NCBI GenBank assembly: GCA_017525035.1
Contig: JAFXTH010000015.1
Coordinates: 1 to 64,000, forward strand
Reading direction: 5' to 3'
Source: Bacilli bacterium
GTDB lineage: Bacteria > Bacillota_I > Bacilli_A > RF39 > UBA660
DNA: 64,000 nt
Shown here: in pieces, positions 4,162 to 47,947 of the stretch
How the letters are laid out: every line of letters starts with the position of its first letter
How positions within the stretch are numbered: the stretch's first letter is position 1
The notes under the pieces: generated by a model
What the model was told of the DNA's origin: nothing
Database searches by the model: none
Seen by the model: the letters and a program-made list of their open reading frames with translations, nothing else
Position numbers and translations under genes: made by a program

Positions 4162-4186
4162 TTATATAGAATAGAGAGTGGTTACC

Positions 4187-7100
4187 ATGAAGTTATTAAT
4201 ATGTGATAACGAACAAGTTAATTTACACAATCTTCCTGAAGAAATTCAGAATTTTTATATTGTAAATTATTTATCACATATTGATAATATCTCAGAGATG
4301 CTTACTTTAGAGGCTCAAGATAATGCTTGGAACATTGTAAGTAATAAGAATATTGAGATAACTTTAAATGGTAAACAATGCGATAAAGCTCCATTACTTC
4401 CTTATATTGTATATAATGTTTATTTTTCGGTTATAAATAGAATGGTTAAAGTAGTATCTGTTCCTAGTAATGAGAAGTTTAGATATGCTTCTTCTAGAAT
4501 TATGAATGATATTAGTATTGGTCAAGAACCTTCTAGTACAATTTGTTGTATGCTACCTTCTTTGCATATTAATCATGCGAAGATTACAACAGCTAACAAC
4601 ATAACATATTTAAATTTATGTGAACCAACATGCGATGTTTATGTTAATAATCGTAGAGTAAAAGTTCCTCAAATAGAACTTAAATATGGAGATACTATAT
4701 TCATTGATTCTTTAAAGATTATATGGCTAGATACATATTTTGCTATTAACAATCCAAATAATTCAGTTACTTTAAATAACGTTGACTTTGTTAATATCAA
4801 TATGGAAGATGCTAAGTCATATACTGAAGTTACTGAATCAGAAAGAAATGTTAAATTATACGGGGATAACGATATCTTCTTTCATACTCCTAAAATTAAG
4901 AGTTACATAAAAGAAGAAGAACTAGAAATAGATAGCCCTCCTGAGAAAGATAACACACCAGGAGTACCACTAATCCTTTCAGTAGGATCTAGTGCTATTA
5001 TTGGTATATCTTCATGTATTACAGGTATATCTGCAGTTACTGGTTTAATGAATGGTACTATGGATAAGATGGATGCATACTTGCAACTTGCAATGTGCTT
5101 CTTAATGCTTATATCATGTTTTGCAATACCAATAATCGCTGATATTTGGCAGAAGAACCAAAGAAAGAAAAGAGAAGATTTAAGACAAAGAAGATATAGA
5201 GACTATTTGGCTAAGAATGTTAATCATATAAATGAAACAATAAAACAACAAGAAACAATATTAAGAGAAAAATATTTAACATTAGATGAAATAGTTACTG
5301 AAACAGCTAACTCTGGTTATAATTTATGGAGTAGAGAAGTTGTTGATAAAGATTTCTTAACTGTACGTTTAGGTATAGGTAATATGCCTGCTTATATAAA
5401 AGTTTCAGCACAAACAGAAAAGTTTTCTTTATACGATGATAACTTAAAAGATGAAGTTGTAAAAATAGCCAATGATGAAAAATTACTTAATAATGTTCCT
5501 ATTACAATTTCTATGATTGATAATAGGATTACTCCAATAGTAGTACAAACAAATCAATATAAAGAATATATAAACGCGATAATGCTACAATTGATGTTCT
5601 ATTATAGTGCACTTGATTTAAAAATTGTTGTATTTACTAACGAAAATTTAGAAGATCATTTCAGTTATCTTAGATATTCAAACCATTGTTGGAGTGTTAA
5701 TAGAGATATTAGATTCTTTGCTACTAATGAGATAGAAGCTAATCAATTAAGTATGTATCTTGAGCAAGAATATAATAAGAGATTACCTAGCAGTAATGCA
5801 ACAGCAGATGATAAAAAATACGATGGTAATGTTCCAGTATATAAAGACTATAATGAATATTATTTAATTGTTACTGATGACTTTAAGAGTTTTAAAGACG
5901 TTTCTATTATTAATAGAATTATAAATAGTGATATCAACTTAGGTTTCTCTTTATTAGTATTTTCTGAATCACTTAAGAATTTACCTAGTAGATTAGAGAA
6001 ATTTATAGTAGTAGAAAATGGACAAAGTGGTTTATACAATAAAACATTTGATAATACATACTTAGGTAAATTTTCTGCTGAATATTTAACTAATTACGAT
6101 ATTCACAAGTTAGCTCATAAGATTTCAAATATACCATTACCAGTTGAAGGTAATGAATCTAATATGCCTAAGTCTCTTAGCTTCTTAGATTTATATAACG
6201 TTGGTAAAGTAGAACATTTGAATATTTTATCTAGATGGCGTACTAATACACCTATGACTAGTTTGAATGCTCCAATAGGAGTACAAGCTAATTACAAACC
6301 AATTGGCCTAGATCTTCATGAAAAGGCACATGGACCACATGGTTTAATTGCTGGTTCAACTGGATCAGGTAAATCAGAATTTATTATTACATATATCTTA
6401 TCTATGGCTATTAACTATCACCCATATGAAGTTCAATTTGTATTAATTGACTATAAAGGTGGAGGTTTAGCAGGTGCTTTTGAAAAGCGTGAAAAAGGTA
6501 TTAAGATACCACACTTAATTGGTACAATTACTAACTTAGATAAGAGTGAAATGAATAGAACCTTAGTATCTATCAAGAGTGAACTTGAAAGAAGACAAAT
6601 TAAGTTCAATAAGGCTCGTGATGCTTTAGGAGAAGGTACTATTGATATCTATAAATATCAAAGATTGTTTAGAGAAGGAAAAGTCAGTGAACCAATAAGT
6701 CATTTGTTTATAATAAGTGATGAGTTTGCTGAGTTAAAGCAACAACAACCTGAATTTATGGATGAACTTGTTTCGACAGCTCGTATAGGACGTTCGTTAG
6801 GTGTGCATTTAATACTTGCAACACAAAAGCCTAGTGGAGTAGTTAATGATCAAATATGGTCAAACTCAAGATTTAAAGTATGTTTAAAAGTTCAAACATC
6901 AGAAGATAGCTTTGAAGTATTAAAACGTGATGAAGCATCTAAAATTAGAGAAACTGGTAGGTTCTACTTACAAGTTGGTAATGATGAATTGTTTGAACTT
7001 GGTCAATCAGCATGGGCTGGAGACAAATATTATCCTGCCGAATATGTTTTGCCAAAAGTAAATGATTCAATTGACTTTATTAGTAATGACGGTACTATTA

Positions 7101-8758
7101 CTAAATCTGTAGTAGATGATAGAAGACAAAAGGAAGAGAGTCGTGGTGAACAACTACCAAATATTGTTCAATACTTATATGACATAGCAGTTGATGAAAA
7201 CATCAAATTTAGTTCTTTATGGCTTCCTAATATACCTGCTGATATATATTTAGGTAACATAGTTAAAAAGTATGAATATAAACCAGTATCATACAATATA
7301 GATGTACTTATTGGTGAATATGATAAACCGACTAATCAAGAACAAGGGTTGTTAAAGTATCCACTAGATTCAAATATATTAATATTTGGTAGTCAAGGAT
7401 CAGGTAAAGAAAACTTACTAGCAACAATGATTTATTCAACCTGCGTATTCCATACACCTGAAGAAATAAATTATTATATATTAGATTTCGGTTCTGAAAC
7501 ATTATCGATGTTTAGTAAAATGCCACATGTAGGTTCATTTATTACAAGTGATAAAAAAGACTTAACAACAGCATTATTCTTATATTTAGAAAAACAAATA
7601 CAAAAGAGAAAAGACTTATTCTCTGAGTATCAAGGAAATTATAAATTTTATTGTGAAAAGAGCGGAAAGAAATTACCTCTTATAGTAACAGTATTAAACT
7701 CTTATGAAGGATTTAGAGAAAACTGTGATATGTATGATGAATACTTAATACATCTTCTAAGAGAAGGTCAAAAGTATGGAATCATATTCATGATAACTTC
7801 TGTTTCTACAAACTCAGTTAAATCTTCAATGCTTGAATACTTCAATAATAAGATTGTGTTACAAAGCCAAGATCCATTTGATTATCAATACATATTACAA
7901 GCTCCAAGAGAGTTAATACCTTCTTCATATTTTGGAAGAGGTATTACAATGGTAAATGGTTCTCCATGTGAGTTCCAAACAGCTTTCATTACTACTAAAG
8001 ATGAAGTGGGTACTATTGTTAGATCAGATTCAAAGAAATTGTTAGATTATTATAAATATAAAATTCCAGAAATTAAAGCAATGCCTAAACATGCAACATT
8101 TGATGATTTATGTAAAAATGTTAAGCTATTGAATAATGTTTCTATAGGTTATAATACAGAAACTGCTGAATTAATTTCTTATGATTTTATCAAGAATAAA
8201 CTTACTTTAATTTTAGGAGAAGGAACAACTGAAGATAATACATTTATGTTTACTATTATTGATTTGATAGATAACATAAAGAACATTACGCTTAACATAT
8301 TTGATATTAGTTCAAGCATAAATACCGATGGAAATGCAAATTATTACAATGCTGATTTTGCAATACCATTTGCTAATGTATTAGATGAGCAACCTGAAAA
8401 CATGCAAGTAAATATTATCATTGGTATTGGTTTTGCTAAAGATTTACTATCAGAGGAAGAATATGACAGTTTAACAAAAATGATTGTTAATGCTAATAAT
8501 CTTCAAAATAATACTTTCATAATATTTGATAATTATTCAAGATTCCAAGAATTAAAGGATACACCACTATATCAGGCTTTTGATAGAAAGAATGGATTCT
8601 GGTATGGTGAAGGGTTCGATACTCAAGATTTCTATGATAATAGTGAGTTAACTGATTCTGATTTGTATGATGATACAGTTAATAAAGTATATTATATAGT
8701 TAACAATAAATATTCCGTAATCAAAGGAGTAGGTTATACGGAGGTGGATGATGAATAA
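4187..8758 (+). CDS. essC: Type VII secretion FtsK/SpoIIIE-type ATPase EssC
   Basis: Membrane motor that recognises and exports WXG100 proteins in Bacillota. In the 1,523 residues, an N-terminal FHA-like part (about 1-185) precedes two membrane segments (about 261-285 and 299-322). Two full RecA-like ATPase domains follow, with P-loops GSTGSGKS at 723-730 and GSQGSGKE at 1068-1075, and a third, degenerate domain begins near 1344 (GEGTTEDN). This is the order of EssC/YukBA. In the second P-loop the usual Ser/Thr after lysine is glutamate. The ATG at 4187 is chosen over an in-frame GTG at 4178 because GAGAGTGG lies before it. It overlaps the next gene by eight bases. Confidence 0.93.
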   Translation: MKLLICDNEQVNLHNLPEEIQNFYIVNYLSHIDNISEMLTLEAQDNAWNIVSNKNIEITLNGKQCDKAPLLPYIVYNVYFSVINRMVKVVSVPSNEKFRYASSRIMNDISIGQEPSSTICCMLPSLHINHAKITTANNITYLNLCEPTCDVYVNNRRVKVPQIELKYGDTIFIDSLKIIWLDTYFAINNPNNSVTLNNVDFVNINMEDAKSYTEVTESERNVKLYGDNDIFFHTPKIKSYIKEEELEIDSPPEKDNTPGVPLILSVGSSAIIGISSCITGISAVTGLMNGTMDKMDAYLQLAMCFLMLISCFAIPIIADIWQKNQRKKREDLRQRRYRDYLAKNVNHINETIKQQETILREKYLTLDEIVTETANSGYNLWSREVVDKDFLTVRLGIGNMPAYIKVSAQTEKFSLYDDNLKDEVVKIANDEKLLNNVPITISMIDNRITPIVVQTNQYKEYINAIMLQLMFYYSALDLKIVVFTNENLEDHFSYLRYSNHCWSVNRDIRFFATNEIEANQLSMYLEQEYNKRLPSSNATADDKKYDGNVPVYKDYNEYYLIVTDDFKSFKDVSIINRIINSDINLGFSLLVFSESLKNLPSRLEKFIVVENGQSGLYNKTFDNTYLGKFSAEYLTNYDIHKLAHKISNIPLPVEGNESNMPKSLSFLDLYNVGKVEHLNILSRWRTNTPMTSLNAPIGVQANYKPIGLDLHEKAHGPHGLIAGSTGSGKSEFIITYILSMAINYHPYEVQFVLIDYKGGGLAGAFEKREKGIKIPHLIGTITNLDKSEMNRTLVSIKSELERRQIKFNKARDALGEGTIDIYKYQRLFREGKVSEPISHLFIISDEFAELKQQQPEFMDELVSTARIGRSLGVHLILATQKPSGVVNDQIWSNSRFKVCLKVQTSEDSFEVLKRDEASKIRETGRFYLQVGNDELFELGQSAWAGDKYYPAEYVLPKVNDSIDFISNDGTITKSVVDDRRQKEESRGEQLPNIVQYLYDIAVDENIKFSSLWLPNIPADIYLGNIVKKYEYKPVSYNIDVLIGEYDKPTNQEQGLLKYPLDSNILIFGSQGSGKENLLATMIYSTCVFHTPEEINYYILDFGSETLSMFSKMPHVGSFITSDKKDLTTALFLYLEKQIQKRKDLFSEYQGNYKFYCEKSGKKLPLIVTVLNSYEGFRENCDMYDEYLIHLLREGQKYGIIFMITSVSTNSVKSSMLEYFNNKIVLQSQDPFDYQYILQAPRELIPSSYFGRGITMVNGSPCEFQTAFITTKDEVGTIVRSDSKKLLDYYKYKIPEIKAMPKHATFDDLCKNVKLLNNVSIGYNTETAELISYDFIKNKLTLILGEGTTEDNTFMFTIIDLIDNIKNITLNIFDISSSINTDGNANYYNADFAIPFANVLDEQPENMQVNIIIGIGFAKDLLSEEEYDSLTKMIVNANNLQNNTFIIFDNYSRFQELKDTPLYQAFDRKNGFWYGEGFDTQDFYDNSELTDSDLYDDTVNKVYYIVNNKYSVIKGVGYTEVDDE

Positions 8759-38278: not shown

Positions 38279-39049
38279 ATGGACAACATTAAAGTGCTTG
38301 TTATCGATGATAACGTGGAGTTAGTCAGTATGATTAAGAAGTATTTTAGTGATCACGCTAATATCAATGTATGTTTAGAAGCTTATGATGGTGATGAGGG
38401 ACTAAAATTGATTAAAGAGCATCAAAGTGATTACGACTTAGTAGTTTTAGACTTAGTAATGCCAAAAAAAGATGGACTAGATGTATTGGAAGATATGAAG
38501 AAGTTAAATATTAATAAAAAAGTAATAGTTATTTCTTCTTATAATACTGAGGAAATGATTAGAAAAACTTCTTTATTAGGAATTGATTATTTCATTGTTA
38601 AACCATTTGAAATGTCTAATTTAGAGAAGAAGATATTAAGTTGTTTTGAGAATAATAATTATGGTAAAATAATTGATGTGTATCACAACAACTTGCAAAT
38701 ATCAGTAACAAAGATATTGCATGAGTTAGGTGTTCCTTCACATATTAAAGGTTATCAATATATTAGAGAAGGAATAATGCTTATTTACGATAAACCTGAG
38801 TTTATTGGAAGTATAACAAAAGAGTTATATCCAGATATAGCAAAGACCTATACAACGACCGTATCGCGTGTAGAACGTGCGATAAGGCATGCTATAGAGG
38901 TTAGTTGGAATAGAGGCAATTGGGATTTGATGGAGGATATATTTGGCCATAGTGTCGATATAGATAAGGCAAAGCCCACAAATTCAGAATTTATAGTAAC
39001 AATTGCTGATAAACTAAGAATGGATTATTGTAAAATAGCGTTCGCTTAG
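38279..39049 (+). CDS. spo0A: Sporulation master regulator Spo0A
   Basis: Two-component response regulator that, when phosphorylated, switches on sporulation and represses transition-state genes. 256 residues: receiver domain with acidic pocket DD (10-11), phosphorylated Asp58 (VVLDLVMP) and Lys108 (VKPF), then a linker and the Spo0A DNA-binding domain (about 138-250). That domain holds [20 protein letters not shown] and the recognition helix region [19 protein letters not shown], which is found only in Spo0A. AGAAAGGAAAA precedes the ATG. No histidine kinase or spoIVB is adjacent; usually spoIVB precedes it. A nine-base gap and perfect ribosome site lead into a small acidic ORF. Confidence 0.96.
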
Positions 39050-39057
39050 GAGGTAAA

Positions 39058-39216
39058 ATGACATTTTTAGAGCTTGATGAAGACTATAGAGATTTTGGTA
39101 GTGAAATAAAAGGTTATTATGATAAAAATGATTATGAAGATGAATCATATGATGATAAAAAAAATATTGAAATAGAAGAAGACAATGAAGCGGGTAGTAC
39201 TTATGAAACTGCGTAA
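39058..39216 (+). CDS. Small, very acidic protein downstream of spo0A
   Basis: A 52-residue ORF with a perfect TTAGGAGGTAAAATG start, eight bases after spo0A, hence co-transcribed with it. About 22 residues are Asp or Glu, with Tyr-Asp repeats (DEDYRDFG, GYYDKNDYEDESYDD), and no membrane segment. No family recognised. The strong start and the coding-like composition support a real gene, and its end overlaps the next gene. A role as a Spo0A partner or antagonist is possible from position only. Confidence 0.7.
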   Translation: MTFLELDEDYRDFGSEIKGYYDKNDYEDESYDDKKNIEIEEDNEAGSTYETA

Positions 39217-39652
39217 GAGTGCTGTAATAATAACTTTACTTTCATTAACAATATTATTGATCATATTATATTTTGTATTGCATAACTCAAGTAATCATTA
39301 TCTAAAATGTCAGGTTAATATGGGCAGTGACTCACATCAAGATATATACTTTTATTTTGATGATAAAGATGAAAAGATAATAAAACAAAGAATTGAATAC
39401 TTTTATTATTTTGATGAATTTGATAAGCAAGATGCAACGTTTCAACAGGATAAAGAGTACTATGTAAGGGTTGCAACATGTAATAGTATATTTGATGGAA
39501 GTGTGACATGCGACGTTAAAGTTGAAGAAGAAAAAGCAGTTGTTAATGCTACTTTTTCTGCTGATAATTTAAATAAAAATTTCTTAGTATACAACATGGA
39601 TAAAACAAGTTTAAAAAAGTATTTAAAAGAAAGAAATATAGAATGTGATTAA
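39203..39652 (+). CDS. Membrane-anchored protein of unknown function
   Basis: 149 residues from ATG 39203 (an in-frame ATG at 39185 is possible; neither has a clear ribosome site). One N-terminal membrane helix (about 7-27, AVIITLLSLTILLIILYFVL) and an outside domain with four cysteines that could form two disulphides (LKCQVN, ATCNS, VTCDV, IECD). It overlaps the acidic ORF by 14 bases, giving a spo0A-acidic ORF-membrane protein unit ending in a hairpin. No family recognised. Confidence 0.7.
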   Translation: MKLRKSAVIITLLSLTILLIILYFVLHNSSNHYLKCQVNMGSDSHQDIYFYFDDKDEKIIKQRIEYFYYFDEFDKQDATFQQDKEYYVRVATCNSIFDGSVTCDVKVEEEKAVVNATFSADNLNKNFLVYNMDKTSLKKYLKERNIECD

Positions 39653-39677
39653 AAGGCCTTTTTTAAGACCTTTTTGT
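39651..39677 (+). terminator. Terminator of spo0A unit
   Basis: Stem AAAAGGCCTT / AAGACCTTTT with one mismatch, loop TTTT, T-run. Confidence 0.65.
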
Positions 39678-39744
39678 TTTGGTTTATCTTGCTTTTAATC
39701 GCCTTTAAATTTATAATTAATATAGTAGAAAAGAGTTGGTTAAG

Positions 39745-41367
39745 ATGAAAAATAATAATGATTCATTAAAGAGTATAATCGTTTTATTTGTAATTGTTTT
39801 TGCTATATATTTATTACCTAGTATTTCAAGTATGTTATCCATAGTAGATAATAAAGAAGAAGATCATAGTGTAGATAACTATAGTTATAGTGATTCAGTG
39901 TTTAGTATTATTACTACTCCTGAAAATAAGGAGTTAGAAAGTACAATAAACAATTATTTTAGTGATAAAGGTGTTGAAGTTAAAATAACTTATGCTGATA
40001 ACTTGGAAATAGTTTCTGCAATAAATAGTGGTAGAAAGTATGATGCAATATGGTCATCTAACTCTATTTGGTTATATATGTTGGATTCATCTGTTAAAAC
40101 ATCTAACTTAAGATCAACTAGTATTACTCCAATAGTATTTGGAATTAAAAAGTCTAAAGCAGCATCTTTAGGACTTATTAATAAAGATGTTACAATGAAT
40201 GACTTATTAAAGTTAATACAAAATAAAGAATTAAACTTTAGTATGGCTAATCCAGTTACTACTAACAGTGGAGCATCTGCTTATTTAAATATATTATCTA
40301 CTTTAGCAGGTAATCCAGAAGTATTAACAATGGATTATTTGAATGATGGAAAATTAAAAGATAAGTTAATCACATTCTTTACTGGACTTACTCGTACATC
40401 TGGAGATGAAAACTTCTTAGAAGAATCATTCATAAATGGTGATTATGATGCTGCTGTTACTTACGAATCATCAATTATAAGCATTAATAAAAAATTAGTA
40501 GCATCAGGTAAAGAACCACTTTACTTAATATATCCAGTTGATGGTGTATCAATTTGTGATTCACCACTTGTATTTGTAAATAATGGTAATCAAGAAAAAG
40601 AAGATATATTTTTAGAATTCCAAGCTTATGTAATGAGTGAAGATGGTCAAAAGATATTAACTACTCTTGGAAGAAGAACTTGGTATGGTGGTATTTCTGA
40701 TAATGTTAATAAAAATATATTTAATCCTGACTGGGGGATTGATACAACTAAATATATTTCACCAGTAAAATATCCAAGTAAAGAAGTAATTAGACAAGCA
40801 TTATATTTATATCAAACAGAATTAAGAAAACCAGTTCATGTAGTATTCTGCCTTGATTTTTCAGGAAGTATGAGAGGGGACGGAATAACATCACTTAGAG
40901 ATGCAATTAAATTTATCTTTGGTGATGAAGCTGTTGCAAACATGATTCAATTTTCTGAAAAAGATAAAATAGATATTATTAGATTTAATGAAGATGTTAG
41001 AAGAATTGCTTTTGGTTCTGGAAGCGATGGTAAACAATTTATCGATAAAGTAAATTCTACTTCTCCATATGGAGGTACTTCATTATATCCTTCAGTTGTA
41101 GCTGCATATAATTATTTGAAAGACGAATCTGATGAGTACAATGTTTCAATTATAGTAATGACTGATGGAGAAGGAAACATAGGTCATCTTGATGATGTAA
41201 TTGATGTTTATGAAGAGTCAAAAAGAGAAATACCAATTTATTCAATTACGTTTGGTAGTGCTTCAGAATCACAATTAATATCACTTGCTACTTTAAGTAA
41301 TGGTAAAGTATTTGATGGTAGAACTGATTTAATTAAAGCCTTCAAAACTGTAAGAGAGTATAACTAG
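39745..41367 (+). CDS. Membrane-anchored binding-protein-like/VWA fusion
   Basis: 540 residues. One membrane helix (about 8-27) leads to an outside part made of a type 2 periplasmic-binding-protein-like domain (about 55-340; FSIITTPENKELES, DAIWSSNSIWLYML, SMANPVTTNSGASAYLN) and a von Willebrand factor A domain (about 360-540). The VWA metal site is complete: D371-x-S373-x-S375 (DFSGSM), the PYGGTSLY threonine, and TDGEG. VWA domains bind proteins through a metal ion. ATG 39745 is chosen over TTG 39736. First gene of a four-gene run with XpaC-like, a second binding protein and TelA. Confidence 0.85.
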   Translation: MKNNNDSLKSIIVLFVIVFAIYLLPSISSMLSIVDNKEEDHSVDNYSYSDSVFSIITTPENKELESTINNYFSDKGVEVKITYADNLEIVSAINSGRKYDAIWSSNSIWLYMLDSSVKTSNLRSTSITPIVFGIKKSKAASLGLINKDVTMNDLLKLIQNKELNFSMANPVTTNSGASAYLNILSTLAGNPEVLTMDYLNDGKLKDKLITFFTGLTRTSGDENFLEESFINGDYDAAVTYESSIISINKKLVASGKEPLYLIYPVDGVSICDSPLVFVNNGNQEKEDIFLEFQAYVMSEDGQKILTTLGRRTWYGGISDNVNKNIFNPDWGIDTTKYISPVKYPSKEVIRQALYLYQTELRKPVHVVFCLDFSGSMRGDGITSLRDAIKFIFGDEAVANMIQFSEKDKIDIIRFNEDVRRIAFGSGSDGKQFIDKVNSTSPYGGTSLYPSVVAAYNYLKDESDEYNVSIIVMTDGEGNIGHLDDVIDVYEESKREIPIYSITFGSASESQLISLATLSNGKVFDGRTDLIKAFKTVREYN

Positions 41368-41375
41368 GTGATATT

Positions 41376-42002
41376 ATGAAGGGCAAAGAAATAGTATCAG
41401 GTGTAGTTGGAGCTTCATTTTTTGCATTAGGATATCTTGGATTGTCAGTTGCTTTAGTTCCATCTTTGGTAATTGGAGCAGGTGCTTATGTTGCAAGTGA
41501 ACTTGTAATGAAAGGCCCAGAAAGTGGCGTAGATAAAATAGAAGATATGAGTTTGAAGAAGCGAATAGAAATTGCTAGAAAATCAAACAAGCACATAAGT
41601 GAAATGGAAAACGAAATAGATAGTTTAGAAGTAAGCAGGCATTTAAAGAAAATAAATAAAACAACTTCTAAAATATTGAATACCATTGAAAAAAATAAAT
41701 TAAATAATAAGACAAGTAATAAGTTTTTGGACTACTATCTTCCTGTGTGTGTTAAAATAATAGATAGATATGACGAAATTGAAAATCAGGAATTAACATC
41801 AAAAGATAGTAAGAAATATATGGATAGCAGTATTAAAATGATAAAAGAAACTTCTCTTGCTTTTGATAAAATATTAGATAGTTTATATCAAAATGATATT
41901 TATAATAATGAGGCAGAAATGAAAGTATATAATCAGATGCTTAAATCTGATGGATATAATTCTAGTGAGTTAGAAGTTAAGGATGGTGATACAGATGAAT
42001 AA
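41376..42002 (+). CDS. XpaC-like (5-bromo-4-chloroindolyl phosphate hydrolysis family) protein
   Basis: 208 residues with a hydrophobic N-terminal hairpin (about 8-45, VVGASFFALGYLGLSVALVPSL) and a long charged helical part with coiled-coil character. Size, layout and the neighbour telA match the XpaC family, named for a Bacillus phenotype whose molecular basis is not known. AGGTGATATT precedes the ATG. It begins nine bases after the VWA gene and overlaps the next one by eight bases. Assignment rests on layout and context rather than a catalytic motif. Confidence 0.7.
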   Translation: MKGKEIVSGVVGASFFALGYLGLSVALVPSLVIGAGAYVASELVMKGPESGVDKIEDMSLKKRIEIARKSNKHISEMENEIDSLEVSRHLKKINKTTSKILNTIEKNKLNNKTSNKFLDYYLPVCVKIIDRYDEIENQELTSKDSKKYMDSSIKMIKETSLAFDKILDSLYQNDIYNNEAEMKVYNQMLKSDGYNSSELEVKDGDTDE

Positions 42003-43188
42003 AAAAAGAATACTTGGTATTGCAATATTTGTTGTATTAATATTGGCTGTTGTAGGTATTAAATTTTTCCAAGATGGAGGATTTGAAGATGATTCTAATC
42101 TTACAACTGTTTATGTTGCAACAGGTGGAGGGAAAGACAAATTCTTAAAAGATGAAGAAGTAGTAAAAATCCTAAGAAAGAAATATAAGTTAAATGTGGT
42201 ATACGATTCTTGGAGTAATGGAGATACTGTTAGAATCCCACTTATAAGGGAATATAATAAAAATGGTAATCAAAGTATAGTAGAAAGAATTTCTAAAGGA
42301 GAAGAATTCTCAATAACATCTCCTGAAGTATCTACATATGATGCTTTATATACTTCTGATCAAAGATTTTATGATTATTACAAATTAAAACCAGATAAAA
42401 CTAAAAATGAACCAGATAGATATACTGTATTGGATGGTGGGTTAACTCTTAATACACCAATAGTAATCTATAGTTGGAAAGAAGTAGTAGAAAAACTAGA
42501 AAAAGAAAATGTTGTTACAAACCGTGATGGAGTATATTTTATTACTGATATGGATAAATTAATGAAGTATATTCTTGATGGTAAAAAATGGAAAGATATT
42601 GGATTAACTGAATTATATGGTTCTATAAACATTGCATCAACTGATCCAGTAACATCTTCTCCCGGAACAACATATTATGGATTATTGCTTTCAATATTAT
42701 CAGGTGGAGAAGTAACAAATGAGAATATAAATATTAACTTACCAAAACTAAAAGAATTTTATATTAAATCAGGATATATGAATAATACTCCTGCTGATTT
42801 GTTTGAAAGATATTTAAAAACTGGTATGGGTGGAGAACCAATGATCGTAGACTATGAAAAAAGTATTATTGATTTCTCTATTTCAAATCCGAATGGGTTT
42901 AAACAAGTAAAAGATAATATAGTGATTCTTTATCCATCTCCAACAAGTTGGAATAGCCATTGCTTTGCAGCATTTACTGAGAATGGAAAAAAATTACTAG
43001 AAGCATATAACGATGAAGAAATTCAAAGAATAGCTTGGGAAAAATATGGATTTAGAACAGGTATTACAGGTGGTACTTATGATGTATCAAAAGTAGGATT
43101 AGGAATACCTCAAAGTTTATCAAGCACAGTACCATCATTAAAAATGGATACATATAATGCTTTAATAAATTATTTAAAAGGAGAATAG
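41995..43188 (+). CDS. Membrane-anchored type 2 solute-binding-like protein
   Basis: 397 residues with one N-terminal membrane helix (about 6-22) and no lipobox, then a binding-protein fold: TTVYVATGGGKDKFL, FSITSPEVSTYDALY, NIASTDPVTSSPGTTYYG and HCFAAFTENGKKLLEAY. The ASTDPVTSSPGT stretch parallels ANPVTTNSGAS of the 39745 protein, so the two binding domains are probably related copies. ATG 41995 follows GGTGAT. No permease or ABC ATPase is present, so a sensing or structural role is more likely than transport. Two bases from telA. Confidence 0.82.
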   Translation: MNKKRILGIAIFVVLILAVVGIKFFQDGGFEDDSNLTTVYVATGGGKDKFLKDEEVVKILRKKYKLNVVYDSWSNGDTVRIPLIREYNKNGNQSIVERISKGEEFSITSPEVSTYDALYTSDQRFYDYYKLKPDKTKNEPDRYTVLDGGLTLNTPIVIYSWKEVVEKLEKENVVTNRDGVYFITDMDKLMKYILDGKKWKDIGLTELYGSINIASTDPVTSSPGTTYYGLLLSILSGGEVTNENININLPKLKEFYIKSGYMNNTPADLFERYLKTGMGGEPMIVDYEKSIIDFSISNPNGFKQVKDNIVILYPSPTSWNSHCFAAFTENGKKLLEAYNDEEIQRIAWEKYGFRTGITGGTYDVSKVGLGIPQSLSSTVPSLKMDTYNALINYLKGE

Positions 43189-43189
43189 T

Positions 43190-44338
43190 ATGGAATTAAA
43201 AGTAGAAAAAATGCAAGATAAGGAATTAGAAAAAATTGCAGAGATAGGAAAAGATGCAGATGAATCAAAAATTGAAGCATCGTTAAACTATGAAAATTTA
43301 ACAGACGAAGAAAAGGCTGCTATTGATAAGTTCAATCAAGAAATTGATGTTCATGATCAAACACAAGTATTACAATTTGGTAATGCTGCACAAGAAAAAA
43401 TATCTAAGTTTAGCGATTCAGTTTTGGAAAATGTTAGAACAAAAGATGCTGGAGAAACAGGTAAACTTTTAGGTGATTTAGTAGCAGAAATCAAATCATT
43501 CGATCATGCTGTTGATTCTTCACAAAAAATGAATATTATCGAAAGAATATTCTCAAGTGCTAAGAAGAAATTTGATAAATTAATTGCAAAATATAACAAG
43601 ATTGAAAATAATGTTAGTACTATTGAAAAAGGACTTGAAGCAGATAAACTTCAAATGTTGAAAGATATTACTATTTATGACACAATGTATGAAAAAAACT
43701 TAGAATATTTTAAAGAAATTTCTTTATATATCATTGCAGGAGAAAAGAAACTTGATGAGTTAAGAAATGTAGAACTTGTTGAATTAAAGAACAAAGCACA
43801 AGAAACTGGTGAACAACTTGATATTCAAAAAGTTCAAGATATGGAAAATATCATTAATAGATTCGAAAAGAAAATCTATGATTTAAAAACAACAAGAGTT
43901 ATTTCATTACAAATGGCTCCTCAAATTAGATTGCTTCAAAATAATGAAGCAGAACTTGTTGAAAAGATTCAAAGTTCTATTACAAATACAATTCCATTAT
44001 GGAAGAATCAAATGGTTTTAGCACTAGGTATTAATAATGCTAAAACTGCATTAAAGCATCAACAAGAAGTATCTAAAGTTACTAATGAAATGTTAGTAAA
44101 GAATAGTGAAACATTAAAACAAGGTGCTGTTGAAGTAGCTCAAGAAAGCGAAAGAGCAATTGTTGATATTGAAACACTTAAGAAGACTAACCAAAATATT
44201 ATTGAGACTTTAGATAAAGTTATCGAAATTCATGAACAAGGAAAAATCAAACGTCAAGAATCTGAAAAAGAACTTGAAAACATCGAGAAAGAACTTAAAG
44301 ATAAGATGCTTGAAATTAAAGTTCAAAAAGCTGAATAA
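43190..44338 (+). CDS. TelA-family (toxic anion resistance) protein
   Basis: 382 residues, almost all helical, no membrane segment. Matches the TelA/KlaA/YaaN family: long coiled-coil helices with the conserved stretch QMAPQIRLLQNNEAELVEKIQ and the central KKFDKLIAKYNKIENNVSTIEKGLE. TelA was linked to tellurite resistance and cell envelope stress, but its biochemical activity is unknown. AAAGGAGAATA precedes the ATG. It ends the operon, before a strong A/T hairpin. Paired with XpaC-like genes in Bacillus too (xpaC-yaaN). Confidence 0.9.
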   Translation: MELKVEKMQDKELEKIAEIGKDADESKIEASLNYENLTDEEKAAIDKFNQEIDVHDQTQVLQFGNAAQEKISKFSDSVLENVRTKDAGETGKLLGDLVAEIKSFDHAVDSSQKMNIIERIFSSAKKKFDKLIAKYNKIENNVSTIEKGLEADKLQMLKDITIYDTMYEKNLEYFKEISLYIIAGEKKLDELRNVELVELKNKAQETGEQLDIQKVQDMENIINRFEKKIYDLKTTRVISLQMAPQIRLLQNNEAELVEKIQSSITNTIPLWKNQMVLALGINNAKTALKHQQEVSKVTNEMLVKNSETLKQGAVEVAQESERAIVDIETLKKTNQNIIETLDKVIEIHEQGKIKRQESEKELENIEKELKDKMLEIKVQKAE

Positions 44339-44367
44339 AAAGAAAAAATATACTTTTTTCTTTTTTT
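44337..44367 (+). terminator. Terminator of the VWA-TelA operon
   Basis: Stem AAAAGAAAAAA / TTTTTTCTTTT, loop TATAC, T-run. Confidence 0.7.
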
Positions 44368-44401
44368 ATGCTAGAATAAAGCCTATTAAGGAGAGGGCTA
44401 T

Positions 44402-44944
44402 ATGAAAGTAATTGTTAATTATGATTTAATCAATTCTGTTAGAAACGTTAATGAGCAGCTTACTCCTATGAAGGTTATTAGAAACAAAAAATGGAGATGG
44501 GTAAAAACATGGTATCCATTATATTTGGGTGTTGACTTTATGATTAATGATCCTAAGCGAGTTCCAATAGACTTTTTGATTCAAGCTGCTACTTTAACAG
44601 TACTTGAATCAATTACTGCATATACTCTTGATGATCCATTCCAAAGAGTATCAGAACGAGATTTAAAAACTCTTGCATCTTTATTATGCAAGTTAAATAT
44701 AGATACAAGTTATGATTTGTTAAAAGATTCTCAACCAAATGGTAGAAAGTATCAAGTAAGATTAAGCGAAAACAAAATACCTCAAATACTTGAGTCAAAA
44801 TATATATTAGTACCAACATACACAGCTATGGGTGATATTAAAGATACATCTTTGTTGCAAGAACATATTATTGGGTCAAATAGATATGTATTATCTTTAG
44901 GTAGCAAACAAAAAAAGTTAGTTCCTGCATATTCTCAAACTTAA
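44402..44944 (+). CDS. Cytosolic protein of unknown function
   Basis: 180 residues, no signal peptide. A basic, tryptophan-rich segment near residue 30 (RNKKWRWVKTWYPLYLG) precedes a helical middle and a beta-rich end with VPAYSQT. No family recognised. AAGGAGAGG lies five bases before the ATG. It sits alone between two terminators, after TelA and before the AAA+ ATPase. Confidence 0.72.
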   Translation: MKVIVNYDLINSVRNVNEQLTPMKVIRNKKWRWVKTWYPLYLGVDFMINDPKRVPIDFLIQAATLTVLESITAYTLDDPFQRVSERDLKTLASLLCKLNIDTSYDLLKDSQPNGRKYQVRLSENKIPQILESKYILVPTYTAMGDIKDTSLLQEHIIGSNRYVLSLGSKQKKLVPAYSQT

Positions 44945-44956
44945 TAAAATGTAAAT

Positions 44957-44985
44957 AAAAAGGATGAAAAATCATTCTTTTTTTT
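44957..44985 (+). terminator. Terminator
   Basis: Eleven-pair stem AAAAAGGATGA / TCATTCTTTTT (one G-T pair), loop AAAA, T-run. Confidence 0.8.
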
Positions 44986-45010
44986 ATATAATTATTATAG
45001 AGGTATTTAT

Positions 45011-46582
45011 ATGGATAATAATAGTTTTAGAACAATGTATGATGATTTCTTTGGTTCTAGTTTATTAACTGATGAATCAAGTATGAAAAAGCTAGAAGAA
45101 GTTAGCGAAGAAATTAATATAGAAGATTTATTATTAGATGAAAAATCAATAGAGTTATTGAAAAGAATTATTGTATATATGGATAACTATAATAATTCTA
45201 AAACAAGTAATTATATTAACTTTAATATATTATTTGCTTGCGATAATAAAGAAACTATTGAAAAAGTAATAAATATATTAAAAAGAAAGTCAGGAAACTA
45301 TATTAAAAATAGTAGTGCCACATCATTTTCATTTTATAACTTAGATAAATCAACTGATGTTAGTGCATTATATAAAAATGGTATAGTATGTTTTAAAGAT
45401 TTAAAAGCATTTGATTCACAAGAAGTTCAAGATAGAAACTTATTCTTACATAATTTAAAGAACAATATAAATAATAAGAATATTACTATCTTATGTGATA
45501 ACGATCATGATATCGATTCATTCCTAACTTATGATAATGATTTGAAAAATACATATTTTACATTCAAACTTGTAGGTATTAAACCTGATGTTCAAGATGT
45601 ATATAATGAAATTTTAGAAAAAGTAACACTTAGTGAAGAAAAACAACTAGCGCTTCTTGATTATATTACTAATACGTATGTTAAAAGTTTAGATAATTAT
45701 GTTACATATAGAGATAAACTTATTAATTATATTTCATTTAATGAAGATGTTCCTAAACTTAACGAATCTAAGTCTAATGAAGAGATATTTGAAGAATTAA
45801 ATGAATTAGTAGGACTTGATGATGTTAAGACTGCTTTAAAGGACTTAGTAAGTTTAATTACATTAAAACAGAAGACTGAAGGAACATTAAAGATTAAAGA
45901 TATTAACTTGCATATGTTATTCTTGGGTAATCCAGGAACTGGTAAAACAACTGTTGCAAGATTATTGTCTGGAATACTTTATAATTTAGGTTATATTAAA
46001 GAAAATAAATTAATAGAAGTATCTTCAAAAGATTTAGTAGCAGAGTATGTTGGTCAAACTGCTCCAAAGACTAATGCAGCAATTGAAAGAGCTAAAGGTG
46101 GAATTTTATTTATTGATGAAGCTTATGCACTTGCTAGTGACAATAGTTCATATAACGATGAAGCAATAGCTACTTTAATTAAAGGTATGGAAGATTATCG
46201 TGATGATTTAGTAGTTATACTTGCTGGATACACTAAAGAGATGCAAGCATTTTTAAATTCTAATTCAGGAATTGTATCACGTATTGGTTATACACTAACA
46301 TTTAAAGATTATACAGTTGATGAATTAATTGAAATCTTTAAATCAATGGTTTATAAGGCAGGATTTAAGATTACTGATGGAGCACTTTTAAAGGCAAGAC
46401 ATATTATTGAAGATAATATTAATACTAAGAACTTTGGTAATGCAAGATTTGTAAGAAATCTATACGAGAAGACAGTAGTTAAACATGCTACTAACACAAA
46501 AGAAAGAAAGAAGAAAGACTTATTAATTACTATTACTGAAGAAGATATAAATGCAGACAATTTAATAGCGCAAAAAGATTAA
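45011..46582 (+). CDS. CbbX/SpoVK-type AAA+ ATPase
   Basis: 523 residues. The N-terminal 250 are mostly helical, of no known family. The C-terminal part is an AAA+ module of the CbxX/CfqX/SpoVK group: ELVGLDDVKTALKDLVSLI leader, Walker A GNPGTGKT at 306-313, the pore-type EYVGQTAPKT, Walker B GGILFIDEAYAL near 365, and sensor 2 ARFVRN. This family remodels proteins; SpoVK acts in Bacillus sporulation and EccA-type relatives in mycobacterial type VII secretion. ATAGAGG precedes the ATG. It is transcribed alone. Confidence 0.88.
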   Translation: MDNNSFRTMYDDFFGSSLLTDESSMKKLEEVSEEINIEDLLLDEKSIELLKRIIVYMDNYNNSKTSNYINFNILFACDNKETIEKVINILKRKSGNYIKNSSATSFSFYNLDKSTDVSALYKNGIVCFKDLKAFDSQEVQDRNLFLHNLKNNINNKNITILCDNDHDIDSFLTYDNDLKNTYFTFKLVGIKPDVQDVYNEILEKVTLSEEKQLALLDYITNTYVKSLDNYVTYRDKLINYISFNEDVPKLNESKSNEEIFEELNELVGLDDVKTALKDLVSLITLKQKTEGTLKIKDINLHMLFLGNPGTGKTTVARLLSGILYNLGYIKENKLIEVSSKDLVAEYVGQTAPKTNAAIERAKGGILFIDEAYALASDNSSYNDEAIATLIKGMEDYRDDLVVILAGYTKEMQAFLNSNSGIVSRIGYTLTFKDYTVDELIEIFKSMVYKAGFKITDGALLKARHIIEDNINTKNFGNARFVRNLYEKTVVKHATNTKERKKKDLLITITEEDINADNLIAQKD

Positions 46583-46608
46583 GCATCTATTACCGAATAG
46601 GTGCTTTT
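46581..46608 (+). terminator. Terminator of AAA+ gene
   Basis: Eleven-pair stem AAGCATCTATT / AATAGGTGCTT, loop ACCG; short T-run. Confidence 0.7.
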
Positions 46609-46610
46609 AC

Positions 46611-46639
46611 TTGACTATTTTTGGTGTTAGTATTATAGT
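46611..46639 (+). promoter_or_regulatory. Promoter of DUF4143 ATPase-gpmI
   Basis: TTGACT (46611-46616), 17-base spacer, TATAGT (46634-46639). Confidence 0.6.
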
Positions 46640-46672
46640 TATATTATAAAAAATGGTACGGGAGGTCATTTT

Positions 46673-47947
46673 ATGGAGCGTAAAGTAGTAAAATTCTTAA
46701 AACACTGGCAAGAGGATGAAAACAGAAAACCACTAGTAGTATATGGTAGTAAGCAAGTAGGTAAGACTTATACCGTATTAAAGTTTGGAGAAGAAAACTA
46801 TACTAATGTTGTTTATATCGATGCTGATAATAATAAAGTATTAAAAGAAGGATTAAAAAAGCAAAATACTATTGATGGTATAATTGCCAAATTAAGTGAA
46901 ATAACTAAAGAAGAAATTAAAAAGAATGAAACTTTAGTAGTTATTGATAATTTAAATGATGTTGATATTGTTAATACTATCAAAACAATTGGTAAGTTTA
47001 AAAATGAATATCATGTTATTTTAATTACATCTTTACGTGATAATTTAAATAAGTTTAAAGGTACTGAACTTCAATTTAAATCTATGCTTCCAATGGATTT
47101 TGAAGAATATCTAGTTGCAGTAGGAAAAGGTGAGTTAGTTGATTTTATTAAGAACTCATTTAAAAATAGTACTAAAATGCCATTCCATAAAGTTGCTATG
47201 GAATATTACAATTCATATATCTTAACTGGTGGAATGCCTGAAGCAGTTGAGCTTTCATTAAGAGATAATAATAAAATACTTCAAAATTCAGTATTTGATA
47301 AAATAATTGATACTTATAAAAAAGAAATTTCATTACAAGATAATTTAATAGATATATCAAGAAGTATAGAGGTTTATGACAGTATCTCATCTCAATTAAT
47401 GAAATCAAATAAGAAGTTCCAATATGGTCTTATTAAAGATGGTGGAAGAAGTAAAGAGTATGAGAATTCTTTAACATTCCTTCACAACAATGGGTTGATT
47501 TACAAATGCTATAGACTTGATGAGATTAAGTCTCCAATAAGTAATTACAAAGATAAAGATAGTTTCAAAGTATATATGAATGATACTGGTCTATTGTATA
47601 AAAAACTAAAGATCAATGAAGCTATATTTAATAGTGATGATAAAGTTAAACAAGTACTATATGAGAATAGTGTTGCTATATCGCTAATAAGTGCTGGATA
47701 TAGTATTTACTATTATCAATCAGATGGTAAAGCATTTGTAGACTTTGTAATTCAAACAAGAGGTGGTAATATAGTACCTATTGAACTTGTACCATTCAAT
47801 AAAACAAAATCTAAAGCTTTAGCAGTTTATGTTAATAAATATAAACCAAGTGAAGCTATTAGAATTACACAAGACAATTTCTGCATGAAAAAAGGTGTTA
47901 GATATATTCCTTTATATGCAACATTTTGTTTAAGCGAATTAGTTTAG
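46673..47947 (+). CDS. AAA ATPase with DUF4143-type C-terminus
   Basis: 424 residues. P-loop GSKQVGKT at 25-32 follows MERKVVKFLKHWQ; LVVIDNLNDV is Walker B-like. The C-terminal third carries the DUF4143 pattern (YENSLTFLHNNGLIYKCYRL, YMNDTGLLY, VDFVIQ and IVPIELV). In most members the last motif is a nuclease-like D-x-EVK; here the lysine is replaced by valine, so any nuclease activity is doubtful. Family function is unclear; members are often spread by horizontal transfer. TACGGGAGGTC precedes the ATG. gpmI starts eight bases after its stop. Confidence 0.82.
   Translation: MERKVVKFLKHWQEDENRKPLVVYGSKQVGKTYTVLKFGEENYTNVVYIDADNNKVLKEGLKKQNTIDGIIAKLSEITKEEIKKNETLVVIDNLNDVDIVNTIKTIGKFKNEYHVILITSLRDNLNKFKGTELQFKSMLPMDFEEYLVAVGKGELVDFIKNSFKNSTKMPFHKVAMEYYNSYILTGGMPEAVELSLRDNNKILQNSVFDKIIDTYKKEISLQDNLIDISRSIEVYDSISSQLMKSNKKFQYGLIKDGGRSKEYENSLTFLHNNGLIYKCYRLDEIKSPISNYKDKDSFKVYMNDTGLLYKKLKINEAIFNSDDKVKQVLYENSVAISLISAGYSIYYYQSDGKAFVDFVIQTRGGNIVPIELVPFNKTKSKALAVYVNKYKPSEAIRITQDNFCMKKGVRYIPLYATFCLSELV

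What the first reader, a model, noticed from the sequence alone, without database searches (positions are those of the whole stretch)
39745..44338. Four-gene operon: VWA-binding-protein fusion, XpaC-like, second binding protein, TelA
Seen: tight spacing (gaps of 8 and 1, overlap of 8), one terminator at the end. The metal site of the VWA domain is complete, the two binding domains share related stretches (ANPVTTNSGAS and ASTDPVTSSPGT), and neither has a transporter partner. Known: TelA and XpaC are found together in Bacillus, without a described mechanism. Inference: a membrane-spanning envelope stress or ligand-sensing device in which outer binding domains signal through VWA and XpaC to coiled-coil TelA.
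Basis: partly seen in the sequence, partly recalled or inferred. Interest (0 to 1): 0.72.

Follow-up and report, generated by a model that had tools for sequence, protein, structure and literature searches.

The report
Portable TelA envelope-stress gene module
A set of genes that travels together in many uncultured gut bacteria, and in shorter form in distant soil and water bacteria, seems to build a machine across the cell membrane: two binding proteins outside, a membrane protein, and the long-mysterious protein TelA plus an ATP-driven motor inside.

Summary
The four genes are real and tightly spaced as described. Conservation is strong. Of 80 related loci in uncultured Bacilli/Clostridia, all keep the order SBP-VWA, XpaC, SBP2, TelA (some cut by contig ends), while the flanking genes change. 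Among 59 related genomes, the same 6 hold SBP2, SBP-VWA, TelA and the AAA+; the other 53 hold no SBP2, SBP-VWA or AAA+ of this type. Genus members show the empty site. SBP2, TelA and SBP-VWA also sit together in Nonomuraea, Variovorax and Sphaerotilus, so the core crosses phyla. Both binding proteins are predicted type II periplasmic binding proteins and are homologous; the VWA metal site is invariant. No transporter, kinase or DNA-binding partner is conserved. Best reading: a trans-envelope stress/ligand-sensing and membrane-protection complex, with TelA-XpaC as inner scaffold and the AAA+ as remodeller. Ligand and output are unknown. I class it as a new variant of TelA-based envelope systems; the 2012 Ter survey that may mention part of it could not be read.

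The parts
39745..41367 (+). SBP-VWA: N-terminal membrane anchor, type II binding-protein domain (residues 50-362), VWA domain (366-523)
   Evidence: Pfam; model pLDDT 86, best match sulfate-binding protein Z 24.8, VWA 4fx5 Z 22.6; anchor residues 10-28
40855..41166 (+). span of the VWA metal-site codons D371, S373, S375, T445, D474
   Evidence: invariant in 58 relatives and in four distant genomes
41376..42002 (+). XpaC-family (PF10112) protein: two N-terminal membrane helices, helical tail predicted cytoplasmic
   Evidence: Pfam 3.2e-19; hydropathy; present in 80 of 80 loci
41995..43188 (+). SBP2: anchored type II binding protein, most conserved member of the set
   Evidence: model pLDDT 80, FutA1/FbpA Z 16.9; hhalign to gene 1 SBP domain; mean identity 74% in 51 loci
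43190..44338 (+). TelA (PF05816), predicted cytoplasmic helical protein, single copy in the genome
   Evidence: Pfam 3.2e-115; own-genome search one match; no membrane helix
44337..44365 (+). A/T-rich hairpin after TelA, possible weak or partial terminator
   Evidence: fold -11 kcal/mol, z -2.6; not found by the terminator scan
44402..44944 (+). ORF of 180 aa inserted between TelA and AAA+; not part of the conserved set
   Evidence: absent between TelA and AAA+ in relatives; no Pfam family above cut-off
45011..46582 (+). AAA+ ATPase of CbbX/SpoVK/EccA type with its own ~260-residue N-terminal region; fifth member of the set
   Evidence: Pfam/NCBIfam; CbbX and EccA1 structures match only residues 261-523; follows TelA in 64 of 80 loci; all-or-none with the rest
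46581..46606 (+). hairpin with 11-pair stem right after the AAA+ stop codon, candidate end of the transcript
   Evidence: fold

Best explanation
A five-gene, portable module encodes one trans-envelope complex. Outside the cell, two related type II binding proteins (one fused to a metal-dependent VWA adhesion domain) are held at the membrane by N-terminal anchors and detect a small ligand or an envelope-damage product, the VWA serving as the docking surface between them or for a wall or peptide partner. XpaC, a two-helix membrane protein, links them to TelA, a cytoplasmic helical scaffold, and the CbbX-type AAA+ ATPase remodels TelA/XpaC assemblies. The output is protection of the membrane against envelope attack (bacteriocins, cationic peptides, toxic anions), achieved by the scaffold itself rather than by transcription. 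Shown: gene set, order, co-inheritance, predicted folds, metal site, predicted topology. Inferred: physical complex, signal direction, AAA+ substrate, protective output, ligand.
For: Order kept in 80/80 loci, 61 with all five genes, median gaps 1, -8, 11 and 20 nt, while the commonest other neighbour occurs in 12/80. The same 6 of 59 relatives hold SBP2, full-length SBP-VWA (81), TelA (80) and the AAA+ (79; one copy is cut by a contig end); 1/C(59,6) = 2e-8 (genomes are related, so not a true probability). Of 7 tested genomes lacking an adjacent AAA+, 6 have a full-length one elsewhere. SBP2, TelA and SBP-VWA are adjacent in Nonomuraea, Variovorax and Sphaerotilus, and SBP2 with SBP-VWA in Deinococcus. 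Folds; one structural match is a two-component-system binding protein (6lkg, Z 23.0). Published: the XpaC-TelA pair of Listeria rises under a bacteriocin and a telA mutant is 4-fold more nisin sensitive (PMC12791056); TelA is proposed to form sub-membrane structures in Ter systems (PMC7824862).
Against: No experiment touches this module. The stress role is carried over from XpaC-TelA pairs that lack the binding proteins. No conserved kinase, sigma factor or regulator shows how a signal would be used. The fourth protein in distant phyla is not significantly similar to XpaC. The AAA+ N-terminal region has no match in plasmid records and the gene is not adjacent in 13 loci, so it is not obligatory. 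Most genomes in the family live without the module.
Confidence: 0.42

Rival explanations
1. An assembly or export machine: the AAA+ and VWA work like a MoxR-VWA or EccA-type chaperone pair that builds or powers a surface structure or a secretion channel, and the binding-protein folds act only as structural domains.
For: The AAA+ is nearest CbbX and the type VII secretion ATPase EccA1 among solved structures. In one relative an EssC-type FtsK gene lies a few genes downstream (L010). VWA with AAA+ is a known chaperone pairing (PMC7824862).
Against: VWA and AAA+ are predicted on opposite sides of the membrane, unlike MoxR-VWA. EssC is not a conserved neighbour, and no pilin, sortase or substrate gene is.
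Confidence: 0.2
2. A nutrient or metal capture system: two binding proteins scavenge an anion or metal, with XpaC or an unlinked permease completing uptake.
For: Best folds are sulfate-, iron- and polyamine-binding proteins.
Against: No permease or transport ATPase gene is conserved near 80 loci; XpaC has only two predicted membrane helices; TelA, VWA and a CbbX-type AAA+ have no place in such systems.
Confidence: 0.08
3. A defence system against phage or rival toxins whose portable character reflects conflict rather than general stress.
For: Patchy presence, changing flanks and empty sites. Ter systems with TelA are linked to phage exclusion (PMC7824862).
Against: No PADLOC model matches the four proteins; no nuclease, toxin or effector in the set; no relative in phages or viral contigs.
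Confidence: 0.18
4. Ordinary neighbours without joint function: unrelated genes that happen to be adjacent.
For: None beyond the lack of experiment.
Against: Order conservation and all-or-none inheritance, plus the three-gene core in other phyla.
Confidence: 0.01

Closest known systems
XpaC-TelA (yaaN / lmo1966-1967) gene pair of Bacillus and Listeria
   Same: XpaC and TelA families encoded together; envelope-stress setting (PMC12791056)
   Different: Here TelA is separated from XpaC by SBP2, and two binding proteins, a VWA domain and an AAA+ ATPase are added
Ter (tellurium resistance) systems with TelA
   Same: TelA and a VWA domain in one gene cluster (PMC7824862)
   Different: No TerD in this genome; VWA is predicted outside and fused to a binding protein; a TerD-TelA cluster is seen in another Bacilli family (L129)
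Stand-alone 'substrate-binding and VWA domain-containing protein' of Actinomycetota and Pseudomonadota
   Same: Same fusion, 21-28% identity; metal site kept in the four aligned
   Different: Annotated only by domain; in Streptomyces and Miltoncostaea plasmids found without TelA or SBP2 nearby
CbbX / SpoVK / EccA AAA+ ATPases
   Same: AAA+ domain matches over residues 261-523
   Different: Own N-terminal region of about 260 residues with no structural match by sequence; scores under the NCBIfam cut-offs
MoxR-VWA chaperone pairs
   Same: An AAA+ ATPase and a VWA protein in one gene set
   Different: AAA+ is of CbbX type, VWA is predicted extracellular

Membership tests
TelA family (PF05816) | full-length match to the TelA profile over its cut-off | tested here: met
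   385 bits against cut-off 30, positions 1-331 of 332
XpaC family (PF10112) | profile match over cut-off | tested here: met
   70 bits against cut-off 29.8
XpaC family (PF10112) | the fourth gene of the module in distant phyla is also XpaC | tested here: inconclusive
   hhalign probability 1.3%; best weak HMM hit 0.0055 in a tiny set; no Pfam hit to PF10112
Ter system | TerD-family gene in the genome | tested here: not met
   no PF02342 match in G000, a genome 88% complete
ABC-transporter binding proteins | type II binding-protein fold | tested here: met
   predicted models: Z 16.9 for SBP2, Z 24.8 for SBP1
ABC-transporter binding proteins | cognate permease and ATPase encoded nearby | tested here: not met
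   no such family recurs among neighbours of 80 loci
VWA domain with metal site | DxSxS...T...D | tested here: met
   invariant
MoxR-VWA pair | MoxR-type AAA+ | tested here: not met
   best curated matches are SpoVK, CbbX and EccA
SpoVK / CbbX | score over the equivalog cut-off | tested here: not met
   252 against 423 and 222 against 459 bits
Known anti-phage systems | match to a PADLOC model | tested here: not met
   no match for the four proteins

The most novel reading that the evidence does not exclude
A previously undescribed, transporter-free receptor machine: paired periplasmic-binding proteins and an extracellular metal-dependent VWA domain control a TelA-XpaC membrane scaffold that is remodelled by an AAA+ motor, giving TelA, whose mechanism is unknown, its upstream sensor and its energy source.
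Probability: 0.3. Interest if true: 0.8.

Novelty: new variant of a known kind. Interest (0 to 1): 0.58.

Why it matters
TelA is widespread and linked to tolerance of nisin and tellurite, yet its mechanism is not known. This module supplies a small, fixed list of partners (two binding proteins, a VWA docking domain, XpaC, an AAA+ motor) found together in uncultured gut bacteria, with the core in cultured Nonomuraea, Variovorax and Sphaerotilus and part of it in Deinococcus. That makes the questions what TelA senses, what it binds and what drives it directly testable.

Tried and rejected
Phylum-wide draw of Bacillota genomes: SBP2 in 3 of 392, so the module is sporadic. Viral contigs and phages: no relative, so no sign of phage carriage. 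PADLOC: none. Linking the distant fourth protein to XpaC by profile methods: not significant. Solved structures by sequence for SBP2, SBP-VWA, TelA and XpaC: nothing meaningful. Distance-matrix correlations between the five proteins (0.69-0.82) reflect shared ancestry and were not used as evidence of contact. A tree of SBP2 shows mixed Bacilli/Clostridia labels, but labels are submitters' and no transfer claim is built on it. The 2012 Ter comparative-genomics paper and the 2010 Listeria TelA paper are not held. Literature searches found no description of the SBP-VWA/TelA/XpaC set.

Full report
Observation. Pfam gives SBP_bac_11 and VWA for gene 1, PF10112 (XpaC) for gene 2, nothing for gene 3 and TelA for gene 4. 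The window lies in a 1.25 Mb, 24-contig genome, 88% complete, with TelA as a single copy.

The unit is five genes, not four. In the first relatives looked at, an AAA+ gene homologous to window 45011-46582 follows TelA directly. A scan of species genomes with an SBP2 alignment found 157 contigs that encode relatives; the best 80 were kept, nearly all titled as metagenome-assembled genomes, many with host-gut or rumen sample names. Five of these 80 are the same genomes as the first relatives. In all 80 the order is SBP-VWA, XpaC, SBP2, TelA, AAA+ as far as genes are present: 61 have all five, 13 lack an adjacent AAA+, 3 lack SBP-VWA at its place and 3 lack TelA and AAA+ (contig ends are among the causes). 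Median gaps are 1, -8, 11 and 20 nt. The flanks differ: the commonest other family is in 12 of 80 loci.

Co-inheritance. Among 59 relatives, SBP2, full-length SBP-VWA, TelA and the AAA+ of this type occur in the same six genomes. The AAA+ of G028 is a fragment at a contig start, and its TelA is cut by a contig end. The only other TelA matches are in two genomes of another family, where one TelA stands beside two TerD genes. Weak VWA-only or AAA-domain-only matches elsewhere were not counted. The genomes are related, so the chance figure of 2e-8 is only indicative. In the genus, the window and G011 carry the module between spo0A and the DUF4143-phosphoglycerate mutase pair, and G001 has it next to spo0A on a contig that ends just beyond the AAA+. 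G006, G007, G008 and G009 show spo0A followed directly by DUF4143 (empty site). G003 has other genes there. G004 has other genes there and carries the module elsewhere. Of seven tested genomes without an adjacent AAA+, six hold a full-length AAA+ elsewhere.

Reach. A tblastn search of plasmid records with SBP-VWA found Nonomuraea, Deinococcus, Variovorax, Sphaerotilus and Streptomyces among others. SBP2 as query found six records, every one among those with SBP-VWA. The order there is SBP2-TelA-SBP-VWA-small membrane protein in Nonomuraea, Variovorax and Sphaerotilus, and SBP2-SBP-VWA-small membrane protein in Deinococcus. Profile comparison of the window family with the Variovorax SBP2 gives probability 98.4%. 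Relative to the window the pairs SBP2-TelA and SBP-VWA-membrane protein are swapped. The small protein has the size and N-terminal hydrophobic stretch of XpaC, but homology is not demonstrated. Streptomyces and Miltoncostaea plasmids have stand-alone relatives.

Folds and topology. SBP2 is predicted as a type II binding protein (pLDDT 80; FutA1 Z 16.9, rmsd 3.6 over 283). SBP-VWA is predicted with pLDDT 86; its first domain matches sulfate-binding protein (Z 24.8, 286 residues) and a two-component-system binding protein (6lkg, Z 23.0), its second a bacterial VWA (4fx5, Z 22.6). The metal-site residues are invariant across phyla. Hydropathy gives one N-terminal anchor in genes 1 and 3, two helices in XpaC, none in TelA or the AAA+. 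Hence the binding and VWA domains are most simply outside, TelA and the AAA+ inside. SBP2 and TelA are the slowest-evolving members (mean identity 74% and 73%) against 51-55% for the others.

Mechanism. Published work ties the XpaC-TelA pair to envelope attack: the Listeria pair is induced by garvicin KS and a telA disruption is 4-fold more nisin sensitive (PMC12791056, citing Collins 2010). TelA is thought to form sub-membrane structures in Ter systems (PMC7824862). From this and the anatomy I infer a trans-envelope complex: outside binding proteins with a metal-dependent docking domain, XpaC as membrane link, TelA as inner scaffold and the AAA+ as remodeller. The gene set, its order, co-inheritance, predicted folds and metal site are shown by computation. 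The complex itself, its ligand, the signal direction and the protective output are inference.

Novelty. I found no description of this set in the held library, but the 2012 survey of Ter systems is not held and may mention the SBP-VWA association. I therefore call it a new variant of TelA-based envelope systems rather than categorically new. It fails the tests for a Ter system (no TerD), for an ABC importer (no permease) and for a MoxR-VWA pair.

Noticed in passing
window 4178-8758 and L010:10088-14701: An FHA-FtsK/SpoIIIE protein of EssC type (type VII secretion) lies in the window 31 kb from the module, and its relative lies a few genes downstream of the module in G004.
   Followed up: partly
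L065:6064-7227 and L075:6064-7227: At two loci SBP-VWA is replaced by a 387-residue protein with an N-terminal zinc ribbon, one membrane helix and an outer part, resembling TcaA-type envelope proteins (resemblance from memory).
   Followed up: partly
window 44402-44944: A 180-residue ORF with no clear Pfam family lies between TelA and the AAA+ only in this genome among those compared.
   Followed up: partly
window 38279-47947; L164-L169: The stretch between spo0A and DUF4143/phosphoglycerate mutase is a variable site in the genus: empty, the module, or other genes.
   Followed up: yes
L129:188-2688: In another Bacilli family TelA stands next to two TerD genes, a classic Ter context, with no SBP2 or SBP-VWA gene on the short stretch read.
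   Followed up: partly
L032, L043, L058, L074, L087: Other genes are inserted between SBP2 and TelA at several loci, showing a tolerated insertion point inside the set.
   Followed up: no
L142:7803-9032: A Streptomyces plasmid carries an SBP2 relative without TelA or SBP-VWA within 8 kb.
   Followed up: partly
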